Assembly (NCBI GenBank): GCA_029008115.1
Contig: JAQXJC010000043.1
Span: forward strand, 1 to 64,000
Direction of reading: 5' to 3'
Length of the DNA stretch: 64,000 nt
From: Desulfovibrionaceae bacterium
GTDB taxonomy: Bacteria; Desulfobacterota; Desulfovibrionia; Desulfovibrionales; Desulfovibrionaceae
A program made the position numbers and the translations under genes. The notes below the pieces were generated by a model. It made no database searches and was not told where the DNA came from. It was given only the letters and a program-made list of their open reading frames with translations. Position 1 is the first letter of the stretch; each line of letters starts with the position of its first letter. Below are positions 23,181-25,572 of the stretch, piece after piece.

Positions 23181-23435
23181 ATGAAAATAGTTATCGCCCT
23201 ATGCCTTGCATGGCTTGGCTTTTTTTGCATACGTGGGTTGCGGAGCGCAAATATCGTTGCCACCCTCATATTCTTATTATGGTATTGTGTTGAGCGGATT
23301 TGCATCAATACGCCATATACAGAATTTTCTGTACTTGTTGGGTGCATAATATTTTGTCTAACTTTACCGAGAGAGAGAGAGAGAGAGAGAGAGAGAGAGA
23401 GAGAGAGAGAGAGAGAGAATATATGGATGTGCTAA
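23181..23435 (+). CDS. N-terminal membrane part of a phase-variable EptA-like transferase (OFF as sequenced)
   Basis: In the present sequence translation from ATG 23181 (AGGAGG nine bases upstream) gives 84 residues. There are three membrane segments (about 3-19, 25-39 and 48-60), then L-P followed by alternating Arg-Glu encoded by the GA tract, then eight residues to a TAA. The tract is open in all frames because it can only encode R and E. The frame that continues the membrane protein (a fourth helix A-N-I-L-F-Y-S-I-V-F-V-I-C-C-Y-L) is the neighbouring one. Gain of one GA or loss of two would fuse this part to the 23539-25572 reading frame, giving about 797 residues. So this is the first piece of one gene, not an independent gene. 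Confidence 0.8.
   Translation: MKIVIALCLAWLGFFCIRGLRSANIVATLIFLLWYCVERICINTPYTEFSVLVGCIIFCLTLPRERERERERERERERENIWMC
23369..23418 (+). repeat. (GA)25 dinucleotide microsatellite in a coding region
   Basis: Twenty-five uninterrupted GA units. Uninterrupted dinucleotide runs of this length are strongly slippage-prone. Each unit changes the frame by two bases, so one third of lengths (..., 23, 26, 29, ...) are in frame with the downstream domain. Confidence 0.97.
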
Positions 23436-23538
23436 TATTCTCTTCTATAGTATAGTTTTTGTTATATGTTGTTATCTTGGTGTAATAGTTGCATATTATT
23501 TACAGTTTGGTAAAATTGAAAATGAGCAAATTGGTGCA

Positions 23539-25572
23539 GTGCTGCAAACTAATTTGCATGAAATAAAAGAAAATTTTCAGATATATATAGGTGTAAAAGG
23601 TGTTCTATTTGCGCTTTTGTTCATCATAGCTACTATTTCCCCGGTATTTTTGAAGAAAAATTGGTTGGAACGTGTGACAACTTATTTTTCAAGATTTGGA
23701 TATGTAAGATATGTTATTCTACTTCCAGCAGGTTATGTTATAGTATTTTTTATTAACGCTGCTCTTAACTATGGTTTTTATAATGTTATTGTAAAATTTT
23801 TACCGAATACATATTCTGCATATAAAACAGTTCATGATTATCAGAATAAATTACAGTTACGGCAGCAGGCTGCTCTTGTGCAGCGAGATGAGATGAAAAA
23901 TCTCACAGTAATCTTGGTTATCGGGGAATCAGCAACATCAGCACATATGAGTGCATATGGATACTATCGAAAAACAACTCCATGGATGGAGCAGGCTGTT
24001 CAGCGCGGTGAATCTATCTTATTTTCCCGTGCGTTTTCAGCACATAGTCATACATCATTTACAGTACCACTCATGATAAGTACATGTAGCCAATATCAGG
24101 CAGGTGATATTGCTGATGCTCCAACGATAGTAAATCTTTTTTCATCTAAAGGGTATGGAACATGGTGGATTTCAAATCAGGAACGTCAGGGCATTTTTAC
24201 AAATTTTATTAGTGTATTAGGAGAAGAGGCACAGCATGTATTTTTTTCTGGCAATACAGAATCAAGGCAGACCAGATATGATGAGGTATTACTGCCAAAG
24301 ATTGAAGAAAGTGTAAAAACTGCCCAGCAGGGAAAATTGATTGTTGTACATTTTATGGGAAGTCATGGAAGATATGCAGATCGTTATCCGGAAACATTCC
24401 AGCCTCAACTGGGTGAGCTCGTTCCAGGTCTGTGGGGAATCCATGAGAAAAATAAGCAGGACGAAATTCATACATATGATATAAGTATTGCATACACAGA
24501 TACATTACTTCAAAAAATTACGAGAATATTGCCTCAGGATCAAAATATTGTACTCATTTATGTTGGTGATCATGGGGAAGATGTTGTCGGAAGCTATTAT
24601 CATGATTCAGCAAGACAGCTGCGCCATGACATGTTTTCAATTCCTTTCATGATATGGGGAACACAATATTTCCGTAAACATAATAAAGAATTGTGGGATA
24701 GTATCGAAAAAATAAAGGATTTATATATTACAAATGATCGTGTATCTGATATTATCAAAATGATAGAATCTGAAACTTGTAATTTTGATTCTCTTGTAAT
24801 GAAAGATGCTGGTGATATTCCAATCCGTAATGGTGAATATTCTGTATCAGATATTACCTGTTACAAGGTGGCGGAAAATGTTAATCGGCTGAAAAAATTG
24901 ACTAAAAAGCACTTTCTTCTTCACCGTACAGATACCTTGGAAAAGGCGGCGATCGCTCAACGGTCTGGTTTTGATGGGGTCGAGATTGATGTCGTCTTTG
25001 ATCCAAAAAAGAATATGCTCATGGTTGGGCATGATAGCTCAGTTATGAGTGGGCTGTCATTAGAAATATTCTTGTCCTCAATGAAGAAATGGGATTACAG
25101 CCGTCTATGGCTGGATATAAAAAATTGTAATAGTGAGTATGCGGGTGCCATTTTTTCAGAATTAGATCGCCTTAACTCAGTATACAATTTTAAAATGAAA
25201 TCTATTATTGAAACTGGTTATCCTGGTGTGTACATTGAAAAATATAAAAATAATGGATGGTTTATATCTTATTATGCGCCTACACCTAGAAATGGTAGCA
25301 CAACAGAAAGTAAACAGATATGCCAGGCTATAGAAACAGCTCGCGAACAGTATATACCTTCTGGTATCTCTTTTGATATTGCGACATATGAACAAGCTAA
25401 TGCACAATGTCCGAAGGTATTTAGTAAAATACCATTAAATACGTGGGCAATACGTGTCTCTGATATTGCATCTAAAAATTCTATTACATCTACATTGCTT
25501 CGACATAATTTGATGGCGGAGCCATCCCTGGACTGCATTTTGTTGTCTATGGAGACTGATGCGAACTTATAA
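23539..25572 (+). CDS. Main part of a phosphoethanolamine-transferase-like enzyme with C-terminal GDPD-like domain (out of frame with its start)
   Basis: The open frame really begins in the GA tract; the GTG at 23539 lacks a ribosome binding site. Order: further membrane helices, then a periplasmic sulfatase-fold domain like EptA/CptA. The latter has V-I-G-E-S-A-T-S near residue 127 (metal-binding Glu), H-T-S-F-T-V-P near 170 (likely nucleophile Thr/Ser), M-G-S-H-G-R-Y near 273 and V-G-D-H-G-E-D near 340. From about 460 a second domain reads H-R-T-D, G-V-E-I-D-V and V-G-H-D, the metal/active-site pattern of glycerophosphodiester phosphodiesterases. It would move phosphoethanolamine (or a similar group) from a phospholipid to a surface glycan. 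The role of the second domain is inferred only. Confidence 0.8.
   Translation: MLQTNLHEIKENFQIYIGVKGVLFALLFIIATISPVFLKKNWLERVTTYFSRFGYVRYVILLPAGYVIVFFINAALNYGFYNVIVKFLPNTYSAYKTVHDYQNKLQLRQQAALVQRDEMKNLTVILVIGESATSAHMSAYGYYRKTTPWMEQAVQRGESILFSRAFSAHSHTSFTVPLMISTCSQYQAGDIADAPTIVNLFSSKGYGTWWISNQERQGIFTNFISVLGEEAQHVFFSGNTESRQTRYDEVLLPKIEESVKTAQQGKLIVVHFMGSHGRYADRYPETFQPQLGELVPGLWGIHEKNKQDEIHTYDISIAYTDTLLQKITRILPQDQNIVLIYVGDHGEDVVGSYYHDSARQLRHDMFSIPFMIWGTQYFRKHNKELWDSIEKIKDLYITNDRVSDIIKMIESETCNFDSLVMKDAGDIPIRNGEYSVSDITCYKVAENVNRLKKLTKKHFLLHRTDTLEKAAIAQRSGFDGVEIDVVFDPKKNMLMVGHDSSVMSGLSLEIFLSSMKKWDYSRLWLDIKNCNSEYAGAIFSELDRLNSVYNFKMKSIIETGYPGVYIEKYKNNGWFISYYAPTPRNGSTTESKQICQAIETAREQYIPSGISFDIATYEQANAQCPKVFSKIPLNTWAIRVSDIASKNSITSTLLRHNLMAEPSLDCILLSMETDANL

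What the first reader, a model, noticed from the sequence alone, without database searches (positions are those of the whole stretch)
23181..25572. A (GA)25 tract puts an EptA-like surface-modification gene under ON/OFF phase variation
Seen: a good promoter, an AGGAGG site and an ATG start a membrane protein that runs into 25 GA units. In the present length translation stops 17 bases past the tract (84 aa). The next frame is open from the tract straight into a fourth membrane helix, then the whole transferase, and ends at 25572. By arithmetic, +1 GA (26) or -2 GA (23) joins the two parts into about 797 residues. The tract encodes only alternating Arg-Glu in every frame and lies in a loop between predicted helices, so many lengths would be tolerated. 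Known: long simple repeats in coding regions cause reversible slippage, and lipid A or glycan modifiers are frequent phase-variable targets. I know of no such dinucleotide-controlled phosphoethanolamine-transferase-like gene in Desulfovibrionaceae.
Basis: partly seen in the sequence, partly recalled or inferred. Interest (0 to 1): 0.92.

Follow-up and report, generated by a model that had tools for sequence, protein, structure and literature searches.

The report
GA-repeat switch splits surface-modifying enzyme gene
A gut sulfate-reducer relative carries an acquired gene for a phosphoethanolamine-transferase-like surface-modifying enzyme that is cut into two reading frames by 25 GA repeats, very probably an on/off slippage switch, and similar GA repeats sit in or before surface-modification and DNA-modification genes across its bacterial family.

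Summary
In detail: a perfect (GA)25 at 23369-23418 separates an 84-codon ORF (23181-23435) from a frame open for 717 codons after the tract (to 25572). Two relatives, 41% and 39% identical, carry the same gene uninterrupted (793 and 786 open codons, no tract). The window's pre-tract peptide matches their N-termini and its downstream frame matches the rest. So this is one gene, now out of frame, not two genes or a chimeric join. The catalytic half matches EptC/EptA structures and keeps their catalytic residues; the C-terminus, with no Pfam match, is predicted to be a GDPD-like barrel. The gene is AT-rich (36% against 62% GC) and inserted at the 3' end of rodA between 147-bp direct repeats. The genome has three more long GA tracts. 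(GA)11+ tracts occur in 46/247 family genomes against 13/286 others in the phylum. Several split FkbM methyltransferase, radical-SAM, acyltransferase and DNA-methylase genes, and a tract ahead of an MBOAT gene is kept in three species with 29, 14 and 24 units. The mechanism is known (AG repeats in a Mycoplasma methylase; poly-T in neisserial eptA). The GA-based, family-wide repertoire found no precedent in the papers searched. No read-level length variation or expression could be tested.

The parts
22000..23106 (+). rodA (rod-shape-determining protein), host gene whose 3' end is the insertion point
   Evidence: TIGR02210 406 bits, over its cut-off; orthologue in same-genus genome G026, 82% identity
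22973..23119 (+). left copy of the 147-bp direct repeat: rodA 3' end now completing rodA (TGA stop)
   Evidence: differs from the right copy at 23105 and 23114 only; no third copy in the genome
23120..25626 (+). AT-rich insert (36.1% GC; window 61.9%)
23166..23171 (+). Shine-Dalgarno-like AGGAGG
   Evidence: direct reading
23181..23435 (+). ORF1: N-terminal membrane part of the transferase, 62 aa before the tract, 84 aa in all; frame closes after the tract
   Evidence: pre-tract peptide matches N-termini of L006 at 1.4e-7 and L005 at 4.9e-7
23369..23418 (+). (GA)25 tract, codes only Arg/Glu in all frames
23368..25572 (+). ORF2 frame: remaining membrane helices, transferase domain and C-terminal domain; first ATG in this frame only at 23893
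23905..24699 (+). Sulfatase-fold / PEtn-transferase catalytic domain
   Evidence: PF00884 1e-41; PDB EptC 5zzu 2.7e-37, EptA 5fgn 7.2e-27
24835..25569 (+). C-terminal domain: predicted TIM barrel, closest functional match GDPD; no Pfam family over threshold
25627..25773 (+). right copy of the 147-bp direct repeat: displaced native rodA 3' end (TAA stop, as in G026)

Best explanation
A horizontally acquired gene for a membrane-anchored EptA/EptC-type phosphoethanolamine-transferase-like enzyme, fused to a GDPD-like C-terminal domain, is under slippage (simple-sequence-repeat) phase variation. Shown: the (GA)25 tract separates two frames that uninterrupted relatives carry as one gene; the present frame relation is OFF; everything downstream is intact; the host genome and family carry many more such tracts in or before modification genes. 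Inferred: replication slippage changes the unit number, about one length in three restores a full protein of about 797 residues, and ON cells then put a phosphoethanolamine-type group on lipid A or another envelope glycan, so that a clone is a mixture of surface types facing phage, antimicrobial peptides or immunity.
For: Tract and frames. Same gene uninterrupted in L005 (793 codons; its contig length of 37,443 identifies G067 as a Mailhella MAG) and L006 (786 codons), neither with a tract; both halves align in order. Catalytic residues in alignment with EptA (5fgn) and EptC: GES glutamate, SHT threonine, SDHGE-type Asp/His, YHDS histidine. No other lesion in 717 codons. Three other long GA tracts in this genome: (GA)29 before an MBOAT O-acyltransferase, (AG)14 inside a small ORF, (TC)40 just before the ribosome-binding site of an endonuclease I gene. 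Family enrichment 46/247 against 13/286, Fisher p 2.8e-7. Tracts inside FkbM and other methyltransferase, radical-SAM, acyltransferase-3, Eco57I and N6_Mtase genes; of 19 hand-picked coding tracts 6 are in frame and 13 out. MBOAT tract kept at 29, 14 and 24 units in three species, each 36-37 nt before the start. AG repeats inside a gene shown to switch enzyme activity in Mycoplasma (PMC3498834).
Against: No reads, isolates or expression data: length variation at this locus is not shown. The two uninterrupted homologues and same-genus G026/G059 lack a tract, so it is not conserved here. The genome is in 52 contigs, so the unit count could be a consensus error of one or more units. No promoter above chance. 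Tract density was not corrected for phylogeny, and many tracts in the family are intergenic. MutS1 is present, so tract instability is not explained by loss of mismatch repair.
Confidence: 0.82

Rival explanations
1. Dead gene: a recently acquired gene that was inactivated by repeat expansion and is on its way to decay, with no selected switching.
For: Present frame is OFF; AT-rich foreign insert; no tract in the two closest homologues.
Against: 717 codons without another stop or frameshift, conserved catalytic residues, intact start and ribosome-binding site; perfect uninterrupted tract; recurrent GA tracts in the same functional classes across the family.
Confidence: 0.1
2. Assembly artefact: the tract length, or the join across the tract, is wrong, and the gene is simply intact or chimeric.
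For: Several contigs in the family end at GA tracts, and L158/L170 share left flanks but not right flanks at a tract, which could be a chimeric join.
Against: Both sides of this tract belong to one gene in two relatives, which excludes a chimeric join; 50 bp is shorter than ordinary reads; such tracts also occur in a single-contig 3.70-Mb genome, G211.
Confidence: 0.06
3. Expression without length change: ribosomes or polymerase slip on the tract (tandem AGA codons, rare in the host's rodA and its upstream neighbour), giving a steady low level of full-length protein.
For: AGA is rare in the host genes (1 of 75 Arg codons in rodA and the preceding gene at 20083-21954); the tract has no stops in any frame.
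Against: GA repeats are not a known programmed frameshift site (own knowledge); the spread of tract lengths in related loci points to DNA slippage.
Confidence: 0.04

Closest known systems
Neisserial eptA (lptA) with a phase-variable poly-T tract in its 5' coding sequence (PMC6111236)
   Same: PEtn-transferase superfamily; simple repeat in the 5' coding region; frame-shift ON/OFF logic; surface modification
   Different: Mononucleotide tract; about 540-residue enzyme without the GDPD-like domain; unrelated lineage
Haemophilus influenzae NTHi_1053, lpt3-like gene at a tetranucleotide-repeat phase-variable locus (PMC2651432)
   Same: PEtn-transferase-like gene at a repeat-controlled locus, of atypically low GC and probably acquired by transfer
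   Different: Tetranucleotide unit; Gammaproteobacteria
Mycoplasma mycoides M.MmyCI methyltransferase with (AG)12/(AG)10 (PMC3498834)
   Same: AG/GA dinucleotide tract inside a coding region; one length ends at a stop just past the tract with no activity, another is in frame and active
   Different: Type III DNA methyltransferase, not a surface enzyme; shorter tract; single locus
H. influenzae hifA/hifB (TA)9-11 promoter repeat (PMC2651432)
   Same: Dinucleotide slippage controlling a surface structure
   Different: Changes promoter spacing, not reading frame

Membership tests
Simple-sequence-repeat phase-variable (contingency) locus | Tandem repeat far beyond chance | tested here: met
Simple-sequence-repeat phase-variable (contingency) locus | Unit not a multiple of three, inside a coding region, so that length sets the frame | tested here: met
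Simple-sequence-repeat phase-variable (contingency) locus | A complete gene exists across the tract | tested here: met
   L005 and L006 uninterrupted, both halves aligned
Simple-sequence-repeat phase-variable (contingency) locus | Tract length varies among cells or isolates of the species | not testable with these tools
   No reads or conspecific genomes; variation seen only for an MBOAT tract between species and between duplicated copies
Simple-sequence-repeat phase-variable (contingency) locus | Expression switches with length | not testable with these tools
   needs reporter or proteomics
Phosphoethanolamine transferase (EptA/EptB/EptC/CptA/MCR) | Sulfatase/alkaline-phosphatase-fold catalytic domain | tested here: met
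   PF00884 1e-41; 5zzu 2.7e-37
Phosphoethanolamine transferase (EptA/EptB/EptC/CptA/MCR) | Catalytic Thr and metal-binding Glu, Asp, His | tested here: met
   Aligned with 5fgn and 5zzu and invariant in A1: E187, T229, D401, H402, H412 of P0001; residue roles from general knowledge
Phosphoethanolamine transferase (EptA/EptB/EptC/CptA/MCR) | N-terminal multi-pass membrane domain | tested here: met
   Hydropathy segments before and after the tract
Phosphoethanolamine transferase (EptA/EptB/EptC/CptA/MCR) | Score over a curated NCBIfam cut-off of a named transferase | tested here: not met
   Best 146.5 bits against a cut-off of 404: a relative, not a named member
Phosphoethanolamine transferase (EptA/EptB/EptC/CptA/MCR) | Transfers phosphoethanolamine to lipid A or a glycan | not testable with these tools
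   needs mass spectrometry
GDPD phosphodiesterase (C-terminal domain) | TIM-barrel fold close to GDPD | tested here: met
   AlphaFold2 pLDDT 80, pTM 0.81; 3no3, 3ks6, 3qvq at TM 0.56-0.60, though orotidine-phosphate decarboxylases also score
GDPD phosphodiesterase (C-terminal domain) | HR...ExD...HD...DxK catalytic motif and a Pfam match | tested here: inconclusive
   Motif visible in window and L005, near-complete in L007 and L008, lost in L006; no Pfam GDPD match

The most novel reading that the evidence does not exclude
Members of this family (Desulfovibrionaceae, many with small genomes) carry an undescribed GA-dinucleotide phasome, from a few to about 40 long GA tracts per genome, that stochastically switches envelope-modification (PEtn-transferase-like, MBOAT and type-3 acyltransferase), FkbM methyltransferase, radical-SAM and restriction-modification genes. 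The window's EptA-GDPD fusion is one member, and the MBOAT gene may be switched through a GA-tract leader ORF.
Probability: 0.6. Interest if true: 0.78.

Novelty: new variant of a known kind. Interest (0 to 1): 0.64.

Why it matters
Repeat-driven phase variation is known mainly from host-adapted pathogens and commensals such as Neisseria, Haemophilus, Campylobacter and Helicobacter, usually with mono- or tetranucleotide tracts. A GA-dinucleotide repertoire in Desulfovibrionaceae would mean that these bacteria also diversify their surface and methylation within a clone, which bears on phage resistance, antimicrobial-peptide tolerance and immune contact. It also warns that genome annotation will call such genes broken or miss them, since only one length in three reads as a full gene.

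Tried and rejected
Chimeric join across the tract: rejected, since both sides are one gene in L005 and L006. Loss of mismatch repair as cause of the tracts: rejected, as MutS1 is present in this genome and in tract-rich G073, G102, G145 and G211. All dinucleotides equally long here: not so, no (CA)10 in this genome, though several genera of the family also have CA tracts. Internal restart giving the whole enzyme: unlikely, as the first ATG in the second frame is at 23893, past the membrane part. Plasmid or phage origin: no plasmid match; only distant (under 30%) transferase matches in phage-collection records; no relative in viral contigs. Shared insertion in G026: its rodA is followed directly by the homologue of window 28730-29185, so its site is empty. 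An early note of mine that the GGDEF gene follows rodA in G026 was a coordinate slip and is withdrawn. Literature: no paper found linking Desulfovibrio or Desulfovibrionaceae to repeat-driven phase variation; the library is open-access only.

Full report
Observation. The window holds a perfect (GA)25 at 23369-23418. An ATG at 23181, ten nucleotides after AGGAGG, starts an 84-codon ORF that runs through the tract and stops 17 nt beyond it; the frame that leaves the tract into the long ORF is open for 717 codons and stops at 25572. The two frames differ by one base, so one more or two fewer units would unite them in about 797 codons. Neither the tract (expected 3e-27 per window) nor the open frame (longest in 2000 simulations: 149 codons) is chance.

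One gene, not two. A search of 247 genomes of the family found two homologues over nearly the whole length: L005, 41% (contig of 37,443 bases, identical in length to Mailhella MAG record JARHYD010000151), and L006, 39%. Both are single uninterrupted frames (793 and 786 codons). The 62 residues before the window's tract match their N-termini (phmmer 4.9e-7 and 1.4e-7 in a two-sequence search), and the second ORF matches from residue 86 of L005 to its end. The relatives have no repeat there; by the positive-inside rule and the periplasmic catalytic domain, the tract falls in a cytoplasmic loop between membrane helices (inference). The same evidence excludes a chimeric assembly join at the tract, a real risk for such tracts.

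What the protein is. The middle of the second frame is a sulfatase-fold domain (PF00884, 1e-41), with EptC and EptA of the PDB as best relatives (2.7e-37 and 7.2e-27). The residues aligned with the catalytic Thr and metal ligands of EptA are all present and invariant in the three-sequence alignment. All NCBIfam transferase models score far below their cut-offs, so it is a relative, not a named member, and its donor and acceptor are unknown. The last 245 residues have no Pfam match; their AlphaFold2 model (pLDDT 80, pTM 0.81) is a TIM barrel whose closest functional structures include several GDPDs, and the window keeps an HR...ExD...HD...DxK pattern. The fusion occurs in six relatives.

Where it came from. 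The insert has 36% GC in a 62% GC window and lies between two 147-bp copies of the rodA 3' end, 99% identical, with no third copy in the genome. The right copy has the TAA stop seen in same-genus G026, where rodA is followed by another gene with no insert. So the insert arrived with, or created, a new rodA 3' end and displaced the native one. No integrase is present in it. RecA-type recombination between the copies could remove it (inference).

Not alone. The genome has three further long GA tracts: (GA)29 ahead of an MBOAT O-acyltransferase, (AG)14 inside a short ORF that is also out of frame, and (TC)40 before the ribosome-binding site of an exported endonuclease I gene. In the family 46 of 247 genomes have (GA)11 or longer; outside it, 13 of 286 of the same phylum sample (p 2.8e-7, uncorrected for phylogeny). 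Some genomes have dozens, including a single-contig genome, G211. Regions around 65 further tracts were read. Many are intergenic; others split recognisable genes: FkbM and other methyltransferases, radical-SAM proteins, an acyltransferase-3, Eco57I- and N6-type DNA methylases. In 19 coding cases chosen by hand, 6 are in frame and 13 out, close to one in three. An MBOAT orthologue keeps the tract at the same place, 36-37 nt before its start, in three species of two genera, with 29, 14 and 24 units, while most other homologues lack it. Duplicated copies within one genome also differ in length.

Mechanism. The best reading is slipped-strand phase variation. Steps shown: repeat, frame logic, intact full-length gene in relatives, present OFF relation, family-wide recurrence. 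Steps inferred: switching in cells, expression of the ON form, the chemistry and its benefit. Mismatch-repair loss does not explain the tracts (MutS1 present).

Known and new. AG repeats inside a gene controlling activity are shown in Mycoplasma mycoides (PMC3498834); neisserial eptA is phase variable through poly-T (PMC6111236); an lpt3-like gene sits at a tetranucleotide locus in H. influenzae (PMC2651432). New here are the dinucleotide-controlled EptA-GDPD fusion in Desulfovibrionaceae and, more so, the GA-tract repertoire of the family, for which the papers searched held no precedent.

Noticed in passing
22973-23119 and 25627-25773: 147-bp direct repeats of the rodA 3' end flank a single-gene AT-rich insert without an integrase; mode of insertion unknown, possibly excisable by homologous recombination.
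   Followed up: partly
L023:2925-2982; L173:2960-2987; L175:1417-1464: GA tract 36-37 nt before an MBOAT gene in three species (29, 14, 24 units); an ATG just before the tract opens a leader ORF whose stop falls near the MBOAT start depending on tract length, suggesting switching by translational coupling.
   Followed up: partly
L025:9592-9671: (TC)40 on the coding strand directly before the ribosome-binding site of an exported endonuclease I gene.
   Followed up: partly
L169:1593 and L144:1508: GA tracts inside Eco57I-type and N6_Mtase-type DNA methylase genes in other family members: candidate phase-variable methylomes.
   Followed up: partly
L146-L148 (G145 contig 2) and L168 (G102 contig 36): Clusters of GA-tract genes (FkbM methyltransferase, radical SAM) with duplicated flanks and different tract lengths.
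   Followed up: partly
L158 and L170: Left flanks 81% identical up to the GA tract, right flanks unrelated: recombination at tracts or chimeric assembly.
   Followed up: no
24835-25569: C-terminal TIM-barrel domain fused to PEtn-transferase-like enzymes, absent from Pfam; GDPD-like motif kept in some relatives and lost in others (L006).
   Followed up: partly
G000 contig 25, 5822-6703 (L002): A second, AT-rich EptA-like gene (30% identity) without the C-terminal domain or a tract.
   Followed up: no
G458, G479, G499 (family f82): A second family of the phylum also rich in long GA tracts.
   Followed up: no
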